Source of the DNA: Taxawa tesnikishii (nom. ined.)
Taxonomy: Eukaryota > Ascomycota > Dothideomycetes > Dothideales
Length of the DNA: 64,000 nucleotides
NCBI GenBank assembly: GCA_030247885.1
Contig: JAPDRO010000013.1
Location: forward strand, 310,001-374,000
Direction of reading: 5' to 3'
Each line of letters starts with the position of its first letter. Positions within the stretch are counted from its first letter, which is position 1. The notes under the pieces are model-generated. The model ran no database searches. It was not told the DNA's origin and was given only the letters and a program-made list of their open reading frames with translations. Both the position numbers and the translations under genes were made by a program. Shown in pieces: positions 7,101-15,784 of this stretch.

Positions 7101-8109
7101 CAGCACAATGGTCAATCAACCCGTCTTCGACCCGTCGCATGCATGCCGTCCACCATACACACCTTCATCATAGTGATTTGTACCTCACTCTATAAACGGT
7201 GCGGTCCGATCCCCTCCGTTTCATCCGTTCCATCGTACCATCACATCATGCGGCAACGTGCATCTGTTACCGTGCCCGTTTTGCGACTGACGGTGTTCAA
7301 CCGGGTCTGGACTCCACTTCTCTGCTAGCAGCTGCACTATGGTTTGCTGCGTCCGGGCGCCAATCCTGAGAGGATTTGTGTTCACTCGCAGTGAGACATA
7401 CGGCGCATGGTGCTTGAATATAGTCTTGCCACAGTCGCGTGAAGTCTTACGGGCGCGCTCTTGGACTGACTAGAGCGTGCAGCACAACCAGTAAGATGGA
7501 GACGAACTAGGGCTGCGCACGTTACAGTTGGTTCTATTCGTTTGTTAAAACAATGCGGACAGACGCAGAAACACAGTGTACTCAAGTTACGCCTGGTGAT
7601 TCTCAGTAATCACACCTGAAGATGTGGCCCGTAACTTCAATCGGACGGCAGCAGTTCCGCCCACATCTCTACCCATACTCAGAACGCATCGAAAGCTCGG
7701 CATATGTTTTGACAACCCTTTCAAAGCTCAACGCAGGGCCGATGCCTGCCAATGAGCAGAGGCGAACATGGAGATGATGGGTGGTTCGCTACGTTCATGG
7801 CACCTGTTGGTAGGTAGTCTGGTGAAAAAGGCTGCCAGGAACAGGGTTGTATGGATCTTTCCCAGGACTACGCTAGCAGACGCGGTAAGTAGTAGCGTAG
7901 GCTCATGAACAAATTGTGTTAGTAAGCATATGCGCATCTCTCATCCGTCATAGCTAAGTGAATTGACATCTTTGTCGCAGGGTCTTACTTTGAGTACGTA
8001 AGATCAGAGAACTGTTTTGCGATTGTACCGCACTTTCCACGCGCAACTGAAAGCAAACAGAGGGTTAGAGTCAAAGTGAAGTCTGAGTCGGAACTCCAGT
8101 AAAACTTTG

Positions 8110-8151
8110 AAGTGAAGCTCAAGTGAAGCTCAAGTGAAGCTCAAGTGAAGC
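8110..8151. repeat. 11-bp tandem repeat
   Basis: AGTGAAGCTCA is repeated about 3.7 times head to tail, followed by a degenerate copy. No function inferred. Confidence 0.8.
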
Positions 8152-8446
8152 CTGAATGAAGTGTGGATGTGTTTGCCGGGTATCTGCACGCTTTCGAATA
8201 TCGACAGGATAGGGTAGTAAATCTTATTCGTAAACAGATGGGTATGCAACTAGCGTAAGGGTATTCTAACGAGAGAACATCAGCGCCCACATGCAGTCAT
8301 GACAAAGTTTAGATCTTGTCGATCTTCAGAAGCAGCGCCTGAAATGCATCTCATAAACCCCCAACTCCCAGTCAGGCGTAGACACATGAATTCCTCTGTC
8401 ACACCATCCCGGCGCTAGGGCGCCGTGTTTGTGAGCGACCCGGAAA

Positions 8447-10673
8447 TCAGTACCCGAACGCCTCGGTATGCAGCCAGATACCCTGTGCACCAGTCCCCTT
8501 GTGAACGGCTCTTTCGTCGCTCAAGGCCACAACACTCGTCCGCACATCATCAACCAGTCCCTTGGGCCCGCAGACGACAACAGCGCTCTCACCGAGGGCC
8601 TGCTCTAGAGACTTCCTGATGATAGTTCTGGGCATTGGTCGGCCTGAGAAGAGTCCGATGGCCGGGTGTAGCAGTGGCTGGCGCTGCTTGGTCTTCTTCT
8701 CGTCCAGCGTCGAAGAAGAACTGCTAGATGCGGAGCTTGGTGTGGAAGAAGAGCCGCAATTGCAGCTGCAGACGGCGGGGTTGATGGCGTCTGCGTCCTC
8801 CTCGTCGATAGAAGCAGTGCAGCAACAAGTCCCATTCGGGCCACAAGACTTCTTGGCAACCGGGGTGGCAGATTCAGACGAGGTGGTCGAGCTGTCAAGC
8901 TCACGAACTTCGAACTTGTTGTCTTTGCCGAGAACTTTTCCGTCCTTCCCGTCAGATGCACAAGACGTGTAAACTTCCTCCACTTCTCCGTGGAAGGAGC
9001 GAGCACTGGATTGCAAGGGTTGCAGAGCATCCAGAATACTCTTCTGCTCGGTCGTAAAAGTCTCATCACAGGTGATATAGACGCTGATGTCGACATTGAT
9101 CTGCTGGCCCTCCTCTCGGAGAGCTTTAACGTCCTCGATAACTTGACTCAACTCCCGCGAGAACCAATTCAGCTGACTTCCGGACTTGACCACCCACACA
9201 AACTTCGCGTGTCTAGTCACAATACCCTGCTGAAGCCACATACTTCCCCTTGGTCGTCCTTGGCCCGACGATCGCTTGTTTGAATGAACCAGATCACGCA
9301 ACAGAGGCATGGTGAAAGTCACACCTGTGCTTCCAGCAAGGAGTACTACGCTGTCAAACTGTCTCAAGGGGCGGATCCGGCCATAGGGTCCTTCGACAGA
9401 AACGCTTTTCTTTCCGGTTGTACAGAGGTCTCCGTTTATGCTTGGAAGGTTCAGTTCGACCCTCTCAGCGTGGCGCCTGATTCTCCTTGTTCCGCCCTTC
9501 TGAGACTGGACAATGAACTCCATCTTGCCGTCGCTCGGGAGTGTGGATATGGTGAAAGGATGTGCCTGGAGAGGAGCAAGAGAGTGGCAAGACAGGAAAA
9601 CATGTTGGCCGGGCTGCCATGAGATTGGCGGATTGCGTATGGTGATGCGAGTCGTGTTCTGCGGCAAAGGCGCGAACTCGGCATTGCAGGACCACAACCC
9701 GCCCATGTTACCTTCTCTCCTTTGCTTCGGGTGCAGAAGTGACATGTTGTTGTACACATACCAAAATCCACGGAGAAGCCGGTCCGCAAAGAAGAGACCG
9801 ACACAGATCCAGATCCAGTGGTGCACCTCTGCAGGCACATGCAGGTACACGAACCCGATGAAGACGGCAAAGGAAATGATGTGCTGGATGACGAAGAACT
9901 CGTAGTTCCAGCCCCGGATAGGTGTCATAGAGCTGATGACGATCCACACCAAGATTGCCCAAGAGATCACACCGTGCTTTGTGATAGAGTCGGTACGAAT
10001 CTTGGTTCCAATGTAATCGTACGGCGCCCAGTCTGCGAACCAGTATCCCATGTGTATCGTAGCGCTTAGCAGCAGCACACGCGACGCCCATCGGTGCAGC
10101 CAGTTGATGCGCTCATATGATGTGCCGACCAGTGCAGCGATGATATTCCGTTTGGCGGCCAGCAGGAAGAGAAGTGGCAGCTGGCAGATAGTGATGAAGC
10201 CTGTCCGGTATCCGATGTCCTCGTACGACCACCGATCGTTGACATCCAGTTTATAAAAGCAGAGTACAACGACTACGACCACTTCTGCCAGCACGATTGC
10301 GGTAGGGCCGAGGCTCGGTGTAGGCGATCTCCATTTCCTGATGGCGAAAGCGGGCAGGGAAGCACTCGATAGCTCGCGCATGATTGCTGTTGCACTGGCC
10401 ATAGCGATCGAAAGAAATGACTTGGGTTTCGCTGGCGTCTTGCTTGATGATCTCAACCTGAACCGAATCCTCAGCGTTACAGACGGGTTGTGCTTGGAGT
10501 TGTTTGGCTTACCTATGCCAACATAGAAACCAGCTATATGCGTTGACGAGCGTGAACGCAGCGATGGCGGCACCCACCACGGCCCAGTACATCTTCTGGA
10601 GATAAAAGAGACCTGGGACGCCGTTGCCCATGTCCATGTTGCCGGCGCCCATGTCCATCCCACTCATGTCCAT
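8447..10673 (-). CDS. Ferric/cupric reductase, Met-rich N-terminus
   Basis: Exons 10673-10513 and 10457-8447, joined over a 55-nt intron (10458-10512), give 723 residues. The chosen start yields an N-terminus MDMSGMDMGAGNMDMGNG, rich in Met-x-Met copper-ligand motifs and lost if the long downstream frame is used alone. FRE-family marks are two His pairs 13 residues apart (HRWASRVLLLSATIH and HIISFAVFIGFVYLH) for bis-haem, FAD motif HPFTISTLP, and NADPH motifs LLAGSTGVTF and VVVCGPKGLVDDVR. These enzymes reduce extracellular Fe(III)/Cu(II) with cytosolic NADPH. Unusually, a Cys-rich insert (SCGPNGTCCCTAS then AVCSCNCGSSS; about 8750-8850) sits in the cytosolic domain before the last NADPH motif. 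It is divergent from the copper transporter at 11623, which with the Met motif suggests a cupric role. Reductase certain; metal preference inferred. Confidence 0.93.
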
Positions 10674-11622
10674 GTTGTTCGGTAGGCCAGTTGGCGCGGA
10701 TGATTCGACCAGGTAGAGGGCGCGTCCAGGCGACTAAATGAGGGACGGCGAGGGCACACACGCACAATAGTCGCAGAGGAAGGTTGGGAGATGTGGTGTT
10801 TGCAGAGGGAATACATGTGTGTATGTGCGAAGCATGACTTGTTCATTCCTCAGACCCCAAGCTTCCGGGAGAAACTGGGGCGCATCGATAGTGGATAGTG
10901 AACAGTGGATAGTGGATAGTGGATAGTGCACCACGTAACCTGCTCTTTTCCCGACACAAAGTCGCGGCGCAGGCCCCACTGCTCACGCTCACCGTAGTCC
11001 GAAAATGGCGGGCCGAGTCAGCTTCGAGACCTTGGAGACCGCCTTTGTCCCAGCACGCCCACGCCGCGCAGCTTGGCGGCTCTGGATAAAGCCCAGATGG
11101 CGATCAGCTAGCCGGAAGGGGCTTAACGGGCAGGCGGCAGCAGCTCGAAAATTAACTCAATCGCTCTCGTCGCCCCGCCTAACCGGCTGGCCTGACGTCC
11201 AACACTCCGGAGACCCATGGCTGGCAATCCTCAGTCTACCGAAGTTTGATCCCAACACGACGACTTCCATGTGCGCGCGCCAGGCCTGAGCGGAGCGAGG
11301 TGGATGTGACTCGGCAACCAAGAACCCTTTCGTGCTCATACTGCCTCTGCTTCTTGTCGAGCCGACTGTCGACTTCCTTGAGGACACCCATATCCTCGCC
11401 CGCACAGCCACTTCACAAGCAATCCGCTGCTTCTTTTTCGCCTTCACAGACGATCACATACCATTACCCGCGGACTCCCAAACATACGCACTTCTGCGCG
11501 ATCACGATTCTTTCAACACTGTCCCGTGAAGACTGCGGATGCTAGGCTATTGTCGCGAGGGGAAATTTACGACTTTGTGAGAGAACTCTCTTGAAACAAC
11601 TCCCGACGTCGGCGCAAACACG
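10674..11622. promoter_or_regulatory. Shared divergent promoter of reductase and copper transporter
   Basis: This 949-bp interval separates the two start codons and must hold both promoters. It carries a 7-bp tandem repeat (GTGGATA, about five copies, one altered) at 10886-10928. I did not find a copper-regulator site that I would defend. Open frames within it are short and overlapping. Confidence 0.55.
10886..10928. repeat. 7-bp tandem repeat in the divergent promoter
   Basis: Copies of GTGGATA lie head to tail, with one copy altered to GTGAACA. The spacing is close to a helical fraction rather than a full turn, so a protein-binding role is only a guess. Confidence 0.75.
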
Positions 11623-12233
11623 ATGAACATGGACATGGCGTCAATGAACATGTATTTCTTCACCAGCACAACCACCCCTCTCTTCTCCAAATCATGGACG
11701 CCTTCTTCGACAGGCCAATATGCCGGTAGCTGCATCTTCCTCATCGTCCTGGCCATCGTCTCGCGCTGTCTCGGAGCCTTCAGGCACTTCCAGGAAAGGA
11801 AATGGCTCGACAAAGCAATCAACCGACGATACATTGTCGTAGCCGGTAACGACGAGGAGGGCGAGCGCACACAACCGCAAAAATCGGCCGAGGACGAGAA
11901 GAGCGAGACGGCAGTGTTGACGGTCCGCGGTGTCAATGAGAACGTGCGGGTGGTCAAGACGAGTGCGCGCGACAGGGAGGGCACTCCATTCAGATTCAGC
12001 ACCGATCTGCCTCGCGCCTGCATATTTACCGTGCAAGCTGGCGTGGGCTACTTGCTGTGAGTGACCGTATCGAGAGATACGCCTAAATAGTACAGATGCT
12101 AATGTGATGCTTTAGCATGTTGGCAGTCATGAGCTTCAACGTCGGCTACTTCCTTTCGGTGCTTGCGGGGTTCTTTCTAGGAGAAATAGCTTTCGGAAGA
12201 TTCACGGCTCTCGATGGAGGCGCGTTGCACTAG
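11623..12233 (+). CDS. Ctr-type high-affinity copper transporter
   Basis: Exons 11623-12056 and 12116-12233, joined across a 59-nt intron with a GCTAAT branch site, give 183 residues. Ctr proteins are plasma-membrane or vacuolar trimers importing Cu(I). Five of the first ten residues are Met (MNMDMASMNM), the extracellular copper-gathering motif. TM1 follows (TGQYAGSCIFLIVLAIVSRC), then a cytosolic loop of about 80 residues, TM2 containing the essential Met-x3-Met (MLAVM, directly after the splice) and TM3 with a Gly-x3-Gly-like packing face (GYFLSVLAGFFLGE). The order is the complete Ctr layout. It stands head to head with the metalloreductase and directly upstream of the X325 gene. There is no Cys-rich tail; it ends GGALH. 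Confidence 0.95.
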
Positions 12234-12832
12234 AAGCGAGCGTCGGCTCCGTCGAGGCTCTGGATGTGGGAACGTTGCAATTCTGCGACTTGATTGAAAC
12301 TTTGAAATACCTGAATTGGGATCATACCTAAGTTGACCGCTCCTCGTCGTATTGTGACTTGGACATCGACGCCTTGATGGATTCGGAAACAGTAGTGTAC
12401 GAGTAGGATCGTCAAACAGCCCCCGCTAGGCCGGATCCCTGCATGCTCAGCCGCGTGAATTAACGTGCTCAAATTCCGCAACTGCGCAAGTTTATGCCCT
12501 CGTAGGCCGTGGCGTGTTTCTTTTGGTGAACGGTGCCACTCGCTACGCCGGCACATGGCGTTCCTGAGACAAGGTCAATGATCGGCATTTCGGCATAAAC
12601 TAGCATTCCAGACTGCTGCTAAACAAACGTGGGTCAATGCTCTCTCCGTGATGGGATGCTATCACCATATAACTTCACCATCATGTCTGCATCGAGCGCT
12701 GCTTACTCCAGCCCACCCTCTCCACATCTACAGCGAGCTTCCCTACCGCAAGCCATCCACCCTTCCGTCCGTTGAGCCCGACAACTGCTCTGCTGTACCA
12801 CCTTCCAACACCGCTCTTCACACCAACTCGCA
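12234..12832. other. Intergenic between Ctr and X325 genes
   Basis: It includes the promoter of the X325 gene. A CT-rich leader precedes the ATG at 12833. No other gene seen. Confidence 0.5.
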
Positions 12833-13607
12833 ATGCGCTCCCAGTTCATCCTCTCGGCGCTCCTGCCGCTCGCCTCCGCCCACTTCAAGCTCGTCTACCC
12901 CGCTGCTCGTGGATTTGACGAAGACACCCTCGCAACCTTCCCTTGCGGAGGTCAAAACACCGTCTCTTCGAACCGCACAATGTTCCCCATTAACGGCGCA
13001 CCAATCCAACTCAACATGGGCCACACCCAGACCAACCTTCAAGTTCTCCTGGCGCTAGGAAACGACCCGGGCAGCAACTTCAACATCACTCTCGTGCCTA
13101 CCTTCACCGAGGAGGGACCCCAGAACTTCTGCATTGGTGCTGGTGCCATACAGTACCCAGAGGGTCTGAATATCACCGACGGGATGAACGCGACGATCCA
13201 GGTTGTTTCCAACGGTGACCCATCCGGTGGACTGTACAACGTAAGACATGACCGGTTATGCAGCGCGCACCTTTACAAACCGCTAACTCCTTGTCTCGCA
13301 GTGCGCCGACATCACCTTCACCTCCACCCAACTCAGTCAAGCCGAGTACAACAATGACTGCAAGAACAGCACTGGCGTCAGCACGCACGCTCTCTCCGGC
13401 GCTCAGGTGAACGCTAACCAGACAACCGAGAGTGGATCGTCTTCGAGCGCATCCGGTTCTGCCAGCGTGAGCGCGAGCGGATCTTCTGCTTCTGCTACGA
13501 GCTCTGCTGCAGCCTCTTCCGCCAGCGCAGGAGCTGCGTCGCAGGCCACCCTTGCTGCGTGGGCATTGGGTGCTATGGGTGTCGTCGCTGGTGTTGTTGC
13601 GCTCTAA
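12833..13607 (+). CDS. Bim1/X325-family LPMO-like copper-binding GPI protein
   Basis: Exons 12833-13240 and 13302-13607 (intron 13241-13301, GCTAACT branch) give 237 residues. A signal peptide (MRSQFILSALLPLASA) is cut just before His17, so the mature protein starts HFKLVYPAARGFDEDT, the N-terminal His of a copper His-brace. A second candidate ligand is His64 in QLNMGHTQTN, the family's usual place. Four Cys (38, 100, 137, 156) fit two disulfides. A Ser/Ala-rich linker and a hydrophobic tail (AAWALGAMGVVAGVVAL) indicate a GPI anchor. X325 proteins bind copper at the cell surface but do not oxidise polysaccharide; Cryptococcus Bim1 works with Ctr1 in copper import. The Ctr neighbour fits this. 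A cell-wall role is the alternative. Confidence 0.9.
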
Positions 13608-14538
13608 ACGGGTTGTGCAAGGCGTTGGTGAAACTACAGAAAAGTGTTTCCAAGTTTCATAATGGTGGACTTAGCTTGTATACCCTATCTTTTCGGTTGC
13701 AGTTGCATGCCTAGAGGCACTGTTGAGGATGTGTCACGAAACGAATGAGACGATCGGTGTTTGTACGCCGACTTTGTCGACTCTCCTACTTGTACTTGAT
13801 TAGCGTCACCTATTTCGCGTTATTCACGTATGTGCCGCCGACCTGGCCAATTGGGGGAACAACTAGGCCATCCGTTCGTGAAGGCGTATCACGAAGGCCA
13901 TTATCATAGGCTCATTTATCGAGCAATTGCAAGACGAGAAATTGCAAGACGAGAAATCCTGCACCTCGTCTTGCAATTGCTCGATAAATGAGCCTAAGTA
14001 GCACTTAACGATCGATTGTCGTGATAATCTGGACTAAATAACCACATTTGATACGGTCAGTAGCGGCTAATTCGTAGACGCATTAGCTCTGCTGATTAAC
14101 GGAGTTCGGCAATCGGAAGACAATCCAACCGGTGATCAATGCAGGGTTCTCGACCTCAAACAAAGAGCTGTCATAGCCTGTTAGCGTTGACGAAACTGTC
14201 AGCTTACACACACACAACCTCAGTGCATTTCTCAGCACGGAATTCCGCAAATTGGATTTGAACGGTAGGCAAGAACGTATAAGATGGGGGCGTAGCATGT
14301 CTCCGTGGTGTGCCTGAATTCGAACAACAAGCAGTTCGGCTCTCCGCAATCTACGAATATAGCAGCATACAACCCTGCATATCTCGCGCTAAGCCAAGCA
14401 GTCAACAAGTTATTCTCCGATACTCAACTTTAATTTCGTGCCGGACTCCCACAGCTTCCTTCTTCTCCATCACCTACCTTTGTATCGGCTTTTGCCATTT
14501 TCTTTACTCTCCTTAATCGCGACTTCAGTCTAGCCAAC
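13608..14538. other. Intergenic with a long perfect inverted repeat
   Basis: No gene recognised. It holds the 32-bp-arm inverted repeat described separately. Confidence 0.6.
13907..13996. repeat. Perfect inverted repeat, 32-bp arms, 26-bp spacer
   Basis: The arms 13907-13938 and 13965-13996 are exact reverse complements (the left arm starts TAGGCTCATTTATCGAGCAA). The spacer begins with a 14-15 bp direct copy of the inner arm end (AAATTGCAAGACGAG). It could fold into a strong hairpin in DNA or RNA. It could be a foldback mobile-element remnant or a 3'-end structure downstream of the X325 gene. I see no target-site duplication. Confidence 0.92.
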
Positions 14539-15784
14539 ATGTCCGAGTCTCGCAACGTCGTCATTCTTGGAGCTTCCTACGCCGGTCTCAGTGCGGCGCA
14601 TTACTTCCTCAAGCACGTCCTCCCAGGTTTGCCGAAGAATGGCAACTACCATGTATACCTCGTCAACCCTTCGACACACATGTATCACCGCGTTGCCGCG
14701 CGCGCGCGGCCGCATCTTCCGAGTTGATGCCGAACTCCAAGATATTCCTCGAGATCGCGCCTGGCTTCAAGAAATACCCTTCCAATGTCTTCACCTTCGT
14801 TCAAGGCAAGGCCACCGCCATGGATACCAATGCGCGCACCGTCACCATCTCTCGCACTCATGGCGGTGAAGAAGTCCTCCCGTACCACGCACTGATCCTG
14901 GCGACTGGTACTAAGACGTACCACCCTATGCTCTCTTTGCAAGGGGTGCTCATGAAGAGACGCAGAGCGCCCTATCGGAATTCCACACGGAAATCAGCAA
15001 GGCCAAGTCCATCGTTGTCGTTGGAGGTGGACCGGCAGGTGTCGAGACTGCTGGTGAGATTGGCGAGTTCCTGAATGGAGCGGCAGGCTGGTTCTCCTCA
15101 AAGCCAGCACACCCTAAGGCAAGCATCAAGCTGGTCGTGGGCGGAAACAAGATGCTTCCTATCCTCAGGGAGTCCCTGTCAAAGCAGGCCGAGGTCCTGC
15201 TCAACCGCGTCGGCGTCGATGTCATCTATGATGCCAAGATGGAGCGGACGGAGAAGCTGGCCGATGGCCGCACCAAGATCCTTCTCGATAACGGCAAGGC
15301 GTTGGAGGCGGATGTCTACGTCCCTGCTATGGGCGTTGTTCCAATGACCGAGTACGTGCCCAAGGAGCTGCTCAACGCCAAGGGCTACGTCAAGACCAAC
15401 GCAGTCACTCTCCGTGTCGATGAAGCCGGGCCATGCGTCTACACCGCCGGAGACGTCAGCTCAGCCACCCGCGGCGGTATCATGGACATGTACGAGGCCA
15501 TGCCCGTCCTCATGACCAACTTGAAGAGAGACCTGCTTGCAGCTGCCAAGGACCCCAACGGAAAGCCTACCGGACCCGACAGGACGTTCAAGGCGAGCAC
15601 TGCTGAGTCTCAGCTCGTGCCAGTTGGCCGGAGTAAGGGCGTCGGTGCGTTCAACGGCAACAAGCTGCCCAGTATCATGGTTTACATGATTAAGGGCAGA
15701 GACTACATGAACAGTGCTGCGGTCCAGGTTGTCACCGGCTCGAAGTGGGAGAAGGAGAAGGGTTGGAAGCCTACCGACGGTTGA
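14539..15784 (+). CDS. AMID/FSP1-like NAD(P)H flavoprotein, frame broken twice
   Basis: Conserved sequence reads in three successive frames. 14539-~14700 holds the FAD fold start VVILGASYAGLSAAHYF; ~14712-14947 holds KIFLEIAPGFKKYP and ALILATGT; 14948-15784 holds the second nucleotide fold SIVVVGGGPAGVETAGEI, a C-terminal YTAGDVSS and the stop. The family oxidises NAD(P)H and reduces quinones or similar acceptors and is related to AIF. Breaks fall at a CG-dinucleotide run (about 14696-14709) and a GGGG run (14943-14946). Each is too short for an intron and each is solved by one missing base. The rest is intact, so sequencing loss is likelier than decay, but a pseudogene is possible. The family is secure. 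Confidence 0.85.

What the first reader, a model, noticed from the sequence alone, without database searches (positions are those of the whole stretch)
8447..13607. Three-gene copper acquisition cluster: metalloreductase, Ctr and X325/Bim1
Seen: a reductase with a Met-x-Met N-terminus (MDMSGMDMG) diverges from a Ctr transporter with a matching Met-rich N-terminus, and directly downstream is a signal-peptide/His17/GPI protein of the X325 type. Known: Cryptococcus Bim1 (an X325-like protein) works with Ctr1 in copper import, and FRE reductases make Cu(I). Inferred: reduction, surface copper capture and import are encoded side by side as one physical and probably co-regulated unit. I do not know of this exact arrangement being described as a unit.
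Basis: partly seen in the sequence, partly recalled or inferred. Interest (0 to 1): 0.88.

Follow-up and report, generated by a model that had tools for sequence, protein, structure and literature searches.

The report
Fungal copper-import gene trio
Three neighbouring genes in a fungus encode a surface copper reductase, a copper importer and a cell-surface copper-catching protein; the same kind of trio was reported in another mould in 2008, so the arrangement is a known, conserved unit, but its reductase carries a striking cysteine-rich loop that may be undescribed.

Summary
The window lies in a 29.4 Mb fungal genome; its X325 protein is identical to one from Taxawa tesnikishii (Dothideales). 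Side by side lie an FRE reductase (8447-10673, -), divergent from a Ctr copper transporter (11623-12233, +), then a GPI-type X325/BIM1 protein (12833-13607, +). Family models, a fold match to LaX325 and conserved ligand residues support this. Locus tags give the full trio in two other Dothideomycetes and adjacent or near-adjacent pairs in eight more genomes. The arrangement is not new: in Aspergillus fumigatus the homologous trio was reported adjacent, co-induced and deleted in 2008, and FRE beside CTR in 110 of 127 species in 2020. P. destructans (CTR elsewhere) and Fusarium (no X325 named) suggest a modular unit. Mac1-type TGCTCA sites in both promoters are only weakly above background. Possibly new: the reductase's NADPH domain has a mostly disordered insertion with a CCC...CxC island, invariant in 41 of 41 aligned homologues and not found in nine other NAD_binding_6 loci of this genome. 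Best reading: a low-copper acquisition module; the island may be a cytosolic Cu(I) sensor.

The parts
8447..10673 (-). FRE-type metalloreductase gene (723 or 727 aa; one intron, 10458-10512 or 10470-10512), Met-rich N-terminus, heme, FAD and NADPH domains
   Evidence: Pfam PF01794, PF08022, PF08030; AlphaFold model of the near-full-length P0241 matches NOX2, NOX5 and DUOX1 structures; splice options
8753..8845 (-). Cys-rich island CGPNGTCCC...CSCNCG inside an insertion of about 120 aa in the NAD-binding domain of the reductase
   Evidence: CCC codons start at 8827, the ends counted from the sequence; conservation; mostly disordered in the model
10674..11622 (.). Shared divergent FRE/CTR upstream region with TGCTCA (Mac1-type core) at 10980 and 11333
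   Evidence: background
11623..12233 (+). Ctr-family copper transporter (183 aa, exons 11623-12056 and 12116-12233), Met-rich N-terminus, MxxxM (MLAVM) and GxxxG (GFFLG)
   Evidence: Pfam PF04145 E 3.9e-44; splice; motifs read directly, their meaning recalled
12234..12832 (.). Upstream region of the X325 gene with TGCTCA at 12444 and 12466
12833..13607 (+). X325/BIM1-like copper protein (237 aa, exons 12833-13240 and 13302-13607): signal peptide, His17 as mature N-terminus, His64, Asp139, Ser-rich stalk, hydrophobic GPI-type tail
   Evidence: Pfam PF20238 E 1.2e-37; identical to P0001; LaX325 by sequence and fold; ligand conservation

Best explanation
It is a high-affinity copper acquisition module. 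The FRE reductase takes electrons from cytosolic NADPH through FAD and hemes to reduce Cu(II) at the cell surface; the GPI-type X325/BIM1 protein binds copper with a histidine brace at the wall and hands it on; the Ctr channel imports Cu(I). The genes stay together so that a low-copper (Mac1-type) regulator can switch on FRE and CTR from one divergent promoter and X325 from the next. Shown here: gene identity, intact reading frames, order, and recurrence of the order in related fungi. Shown in other species by papers: co-induction of homologues and Mac1 binding at CTR-FRE promoters. Inferred: the biochemical relay and the regulation in this species.
For: Families and folds. Ligands: His17 and His64 in 120 of 120 listed homologues, Asp139 in at least 90% of 38 aligned. 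Order: X325/CTR/FRE tags g6092/g6093/g6094 (NU459) and 003756/003757/003758 (Neodothiora); in 10 of 10 genomes where I could read sequential tags of at least two members on one contig they lie within two numbers. Shared contig lengths: 12 in all three lists, 12 X325+CTR only, 17 X325+FRE only, 10 CTR+FRE only (before the exclusions told in the report). Literature: A. fumigatus trio adjacent and co-induced; reductase beside Ctr in 110 of 127 species; F. oxysporum Mac1 ChIP on divergent ctr3/fre9 and ctr1b/fre12; P. destructans FRE VC83_03096, X325 VC83_03095 and CTR1a all induced by copper withholding. A copper-fist gene exists in this genome.
Against: No expression or biochemical data for this species. 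TGCTCA enrichment is weak (4 in 1545 bp; Poisson P 0.019; 3.9% of equal windows reach 4), and no site is TTTGCTCA or TGTGCTCA. P. destructans CTR1a (VC83_00191) is not next to its FRE and X325 by tag. For the A. fumigatus triple deletion the phenotype reported in the passages I read was menadione sensitivity, without loss of growth on iron-limited medium; a copper-starvation test was not in those passages. Under high copper Afu6g02820 was more strongly up in wild type than in the aceA mutant, which does not fit a purely low-copper gene.
Confidence: 0.87

Rival explanations
1. The cluster serves oxidative-stress defence: copper is taken up mainly to load superoxide dismutase, and the NOX-like reductase handles reactive oxygen, so the trio answers oxidative attack rather than copper shortage.
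For: A. fumigatus trio higher with normal than with CGD neutrophils (log2 11, 8, 3), and triple deletants fail on menadione.
Against: Deletants were not more sensitive to hydrogen peroxide or to neutrophils; homologues in P. destructans respond to copper withholding; CTR/FRE promoters are Mac1 targets in Fusarium.
Confidence: 0.08
2. The unit works in reductive iron uptake: the FRE is a ferric reductase and copper import feeds the ferroxidase.
For: The FRE is annotated ferric-chelate reductase in many relatives; the 2008 authors discussed iron.
Against: Partners are Ctr and X325, not an iron permease or ferroxidase; Met-rich ends in FRE and CTR; the triple deletant showed no reduced growth on iron-limited medium (data not shown in that paper).
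Confidence: 0.03
3. X325 is a cell-wall protein that lies beside a genuine CTR-FRE pair without working with it.
For: CTR-FRE pairs are reported without a named X325 (Fusarium; T. harzianum pca1/pca2, passages); Bim1/Cbi1 is also tied to cell wall integrity (passages); this genome has further BIM1-like matches elsewhere.
Against: X325 shares contigs with CTR or FRE in many genomes and has the largest change of the three in A. fumigatus; X325 and FRE keep adjacent tags in P. destructans although CTR1a is elsewhere.
Confidence: 0.1

Closest known systems
A. fumigatus Afu6g02800 / Afu6g02810 / Afu6g02820 (GPI protein, copper transporter, metalloreductase; PMC2481287, passages and one section read)
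   Same: Same three kinds of gene, adjacent and co-induced; Aspergillus relatives of the window X325 carry the name AFUA_6G02800 (P0097 48% identity over 99%, P0109 47% over 97%)
   Different: The passages read do not recognise the GPI protein as X325/BIM1 and read the set as iron/copper assimilation and oxidative stress; I had no sequence of the A. fumigatus CTR or FRE
A. nidulans freC (AN3208) - ctrA (AN3209) pair (PMC7705104, one section and passages read)
   Same: Reductase and Ctr side by side with a shared promoter that has a Mac1 site, both down under high copper; position reported conserved in 110 of 127 species
   Different: X325 not mentioned in what I read; exact Ctr orthology to the window not tested
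F. oxysporum ctr3/fre9 and ctr1b/fre12 divergent pairs (PMC11563359, one section and passages read)
   Same: Divergent CTR/FRE with TGCTCA Mac1 sites bound in low copper
   Different: Third gene of the ctr3/fre9 cluster is annotated SAM-domain (FOXG_07771), not X325
P. destructans BLP2 (VC83_03095) and FRE (VC83_03096) (PMC12113139, passages and part of one section; PMC13208438, passages with table pieces)
   Same: X325 and FRE have adjacent tags; transcripts of both and of CTR1a rise on copper withholding; listed A. fumigatus homologues XP_747795 (FRE), XP_747796 (CTR) and XP_747797 (X325) are consecutive numbers
   Different: CTR1a (VC83_00191) is not adjacent by tag
Cryptococcus Bim1/Cbi1 with Ctr1 (reviews PMC10952591 and PMC7924993, passages)
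   Same: X325-family GPI copper protein acting with Ctr1
   Different: Basidiomycete; genomic clustering there was not examined

Membership tests
X325 / BIM1-like | N-terminal His after signal-peptide removal and a second His (histidine brace) | tested here: met
   His17 and His64 in 120 of 120 listed homologues; His17 aligns with residue 1 of 6ibh
X325 / BIM1-like | Asp as additional copper ligand | tested here: met
   Asp139 in at least 90% of 38, aligned with the Asp of the CAD motif of 6ibh; Asp ligation is stated in PMC10952591 (passage); that this is the very Asp rests on the alignment only
X325 / BIM1-like | LaX325 fold | tested here: met
   AlphaFold, 133 of 237 residues at pLDDT 90 or more; Foldseek 6ibi E 7.5e-11, TM 0.78 by target length; next best are AA11 LPMOs at E 7e-4, TM below 0.4
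X325 / BIM1-like | GPI anchor | tested here: inconclusive
   Ser/Ala-rich stalk and C-terminal hydrophobic helix 221-236; no GPI predictor was available
X325 / BIM1-like | Copper binding and delivery to Ctr | not testable with these tools
   needs protein and cells
Ctr copper transporter | Ctr domain, Met-rich N-terminus, MxxxM and GxxxG | tested here: met
   PF04145 E 3.9e-44 over positions 1-151 of 151; MLAVM and GFFLG read in the sequence (meaning recalled)
FRE metalloreductase | Two pairs of heme His, FAD HPFT motif, NADPH-binding domain | tested here: met
   H103/H117, H174/H188 and HPFT (P0241 numbering) invariant in 41 of 41 (their roles recalled); three Pfam domains
FRE metalloreductase | Reduces Cu(II) rather than Fe(III) | not testable with these tools
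   inferred from neighbours and the Met-rich N-terminus only
Mac1 regulon | TGCTCA sites in promoters beyond chance | tested here: inconclusive
   4 sites in 1545 bp, P 0.019, 3.9% of equal windows; 3 of the window's 23 DHNTGCTCA matches are here, no TTTGCTCA or TGTGCTCA

The most novel reading that the evidence does not exclude
The Ctr-linked reductase is a self-sensing cupric reductase: besides an outward Met-rich end, its cytosolic NADPH domain carries a long, mostly disordered loop with an invariant CCC-x(n)-CxC island that binds incoming Cu(I), so that electron supply is throttled (or copper is passed to chaperones) once import succeeds. The three-gene unit would then contain reduction, capture, import and a built-in post-translational copper gauge.
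Probability: 0.35. Interest if true: 0.68.

Novelty: new member of a known kind. Interest (0 to 1): 0.45.

Why it matters
It places the histidine-brace X325 proteins, whose partners outside Cryptococcus are poorly defined (my understanding), physically beside the reductase and importer in a number of ascomycetes, which makes a direct test of their shared role possible. The invariant cysteine island in the reductase, if it binds Cu(I), would be a feedback device inside a metalloreductase, and it sets this reductase apart from the paralogues of the same genome.

Tried and rejected
DNA of the same neighbourhood in other organisms was sought and not found: plasmids with X325 exon 1, genome contigs with X325 (33 pattern matches, none confirmed), viral contigs with FRE (21 pattern matches, none confirmed). 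So synteny rests on locus tags and contig lengths of protein hits, not on aligned DNA, and no promoter footprint across species could be made.

Rejected: chance adjacency (recurs elsewhere); X325 as an active LPMO (fold matches LaX325 best, and a review reports no polysaccharide-degrading activity for several X325 members); Mac1 sites as strong evidence. The second Ctr (C34, L025) has no match to the FRE or BIM1-like families in its 10 kb and one TGCTCA about 410 bp upstream. Pattern searches for the Cys island in the nine other NAD_binding_6 loci gave hits only in other frames, on the other strand or across stops; an island split by an intron would be missed.

Literature searches behind the statements on what is in print: (listings); for the Cys island in particular and passages of PMC3591440 (where cysteine occurs once, in a reference). 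Other papers seen in passages only: PMC6354809, PMC8425704, PMC12855858. Subscription papers (Kusuya 2018, Labourel 2020, Garcia-Santamarina 2020, all recalled) were not read.
Full report
What is there. One search gives the sequence. On the minus strand, 10673 to 8447, lies an FRE-type reductase with one short intron. On the plus strand, 11623-12233, lies a Ctr transporter with one intron, and 12833-13607 an X325/BIM1-like gene with one intron; its protein is identical to NCBI H2203_006080 of Taxawa tesnikishii, Dothideales. The FRE acceptor site is uncertain between two in-frame options that end in AG. The CTR and FRE of the window's own species appeared only as rows without source (P0121, P0241, both on a 5818-base contig), so the NCBI tags of these two neighbours were not seen.

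Identity of the parts. Pfam gives BIM1-like E 1.2e-37, Ctr E 3.9e-44 and the three FRE domains. By sequence the only solved relative of the X325 protein at E 0.001 is LaX325 (6ibh, E 1e-13), whose residue 1 aligns with His17. The AlphaFold model (38 sequences, mean pLDDT 77.5, most of the core above 90) matches LaX325 best (E 7.5e-11), with two AA11 LPMOs far behind. His17 and His64 are present in 120 of 120 listed homologues, and Asp139 is in at least 90% of 38. The FRE model (P0241, 651 aa, lacking part of the N-terminus; 41 sequences, mean pLDDT 69.6) matches human NOX2, NOX5 and DUOX1.

Conservation of order. Names and contig lengths in the three homologue lists were compared (the best 120 of 508, 696 and 759 hits; candidates were capped at 8000). 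Full trios with consecutive tags: Dothideomycetes sp. NU459 (g6092, g6093, g6094) and Neodothiora populina (003756, 003757, 003758). X325 and CTR consecutive: Sphaceloma murrayae (2104, 2103), Aureobasidium pullulans QM012 (004428, 004429), Coniosporium apollinis (003091, 003092). X325 and FRE two numbers apart, leaving room for one gene: Bathelium (003148, 003146), Bogoriella (002449, 002447), Thelocarpon superellum (005027, 005029). FRE and CTR consecutive: Thelocarpon impressellum (002484, 002485) and Glutinoglossum (002451, 002450). That is 10 of 10 genomes in which I could read sequential tags of at least two members on one contig. Not counted: JGI-style tags, which need not follow position (Xylona heveae has FRE 249662 and CTR 249663 with X325 270121 on the same contig; Aplosporella has CTR and FRE six numbers apart on a 39.5 kb contig; Patellaria, Myriangium, Lophium, Amniculicola and others have distant numbers), and Paraphaeosphaeria minitans, whose two names come from different assemblies. 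Against: Cryomyces minteri has X325 and FRE on different contigs (12.9 and 25.2 kb) with distant tags. Saccharata has all three on one 17.3 kb contig. Thelocarpon, Glutinoglossum and Xylona lie outside the Dothideomycetes (recalled).

I discount 5818 (rows without source, the window's own sequence), 953 (short, may be chance) and 7117 (different organisms named). Same contig is no proof of adjacency for the large contigs; the lists are cut at 120 rows, so a missing partner means nothing.

What is known. In A. fumigatus Afu6g02800 (GPI protein), Afu6g02810 (copper transporter) and Afu6g02820 (metalloreductase) were reported adjacent on chromosome 6, higher in hyphae with normal than with CGD neutrophils (log2 11, 8, 3), and deleted together; the deletants failed on menadione but were not more sensitive to peroxide or neutrophils. 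In A. nidulans freC and ctrA share a promoter with a Mac1 site, and 110 of 127 screened species have a reductase beside the ctrA orthologue. In F. oxysporum Mac1 ChIP-seq covers the divergent ctr3/fre9 and ctr1b/fre12 promoters, consensus DHNTGCTCANNN. T. harzianum has a ferric reductase (pca1) and copper transporter (pca2) with a potentially bidirectional promoter in a metabolite cluster (passages). In P. destructans X325 VC83_03095, FRE VC83_03096 and CTR1a VC83_00191 rise on copper withholding; the A. fumigatus homologues listed for them are the consecutive accessions XP_747797, XP_747795 and XP_747796; that these are Afu6g02800-02820 is my inference. The ten searches named in Tried and rejected brought up no paper that I saw name X325 as third member of a conserved FRE-CTR unit; the library lacks most subscription papers.

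Regulation. TGCTCA occurs at 10980 and 11333 in the FRE/CTR promoter and at 12444 and 12466 upstream of X325. Against a background of 0.65 per kb (window plus 14 fetched loci, the four sites included) this has Poisson P 0.019, and 3.9% of equal windows of the 64 kb reach four. It fits the Mac1 reading but does not prove it. One copper-fist match was found (L031); whether the gene is of Mac1 or AceA type was not resolved.

An unexpected feature. The reductase has an insertion of about 120 residues in its NAD-binding domain (155 profile positions spread over 276 residues), mostly disordered in the model (residues 447-526 and 537-575 of P0241 below pLDDT 50). In it sits CGPNGTCCC...CSCNCG. In 41 aligned homologues the CCC and the next two Cys (CxC) are invariant; the first Cys is kept in 83% and the last in 54%, one further Cys of the stretch (481) is not conserved, and non-Cys positions average 0.31 identity. 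Of 120 homologues, 118 have four or more Cys in a 40-residue stretch of the last 300 and 104 fit the stricter C-x(2-7)-CCC...CxC in the last 330; of the other 16 most are variants, while P0288 and P0342 show only 2 and 3 Cys there. The pattern was not found in the reading frames of the nine other NAD_binding_6 loci of this genome. By homology to NOX proteins this domain faces the cytosol (recalled). The Met-rich N-terminus precedes a helix followed by basic residues, so it is probably outside (positive-inside rule, inference); 66 of 79 homologues of at least 690 aa that start with Met have an MxM-type motif in the first 45 residues. A cytosolic Cu(I) site that gauges import is the natural hypothesis; none of the calls tests metal binding.

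Verdict. The Cys island of the reductase is the part most worth new work.

Noticed in passing
window 14539-15784 (+): Next gene downstream looks like a Pyr_redox_2 oxidoreductase (15137-15784 above, 14724-15074 below the Pfam cut-off) whose reading appears to change frame at two places; pseudogene, assembly error or unrecognised introns are all possible.
   Followed up: partly
window 13907-13996: Perfect 32-bp inverted repeat with a 26-bp spacer downstream of the X325 gene; possibly a small mobile element or hairpin.
   Followed up: partly
window about 8110-8155 and 10888-10930: Short tandem runs (gtgaagctcaa-type; gtggatagt-type, the latter in the divergent promoter) seen directly.
   Followed up: no
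P0064, P0093, P0108: In three fungi (Lophiotrema, Delitschia, Clohesyomyces) the X325 protein is annotated as fused to a NAC-domain protein (PF01849 + PF20238), suggesting that a NAC gene is the next neighbour there and models were merged.
   Followed up: no
G000:C34:94684-95425 (L025): Second Ctr of the genome (MDMDHGGMGHGGMDHGGG N-terminus) stands near a 3-hydroxyanthranilate-dioxygenase-like ORF (name from memory), without an FRE or X325 match nearby.
   Followed up: partly
A. fumigatus Afu6g02820 in PMC8425704 (passage): This reductase was reported more strongly up in wild type than in the aceA mutant under high copper, which is odd for a low-copper acquisition gene.
   Followed up: no
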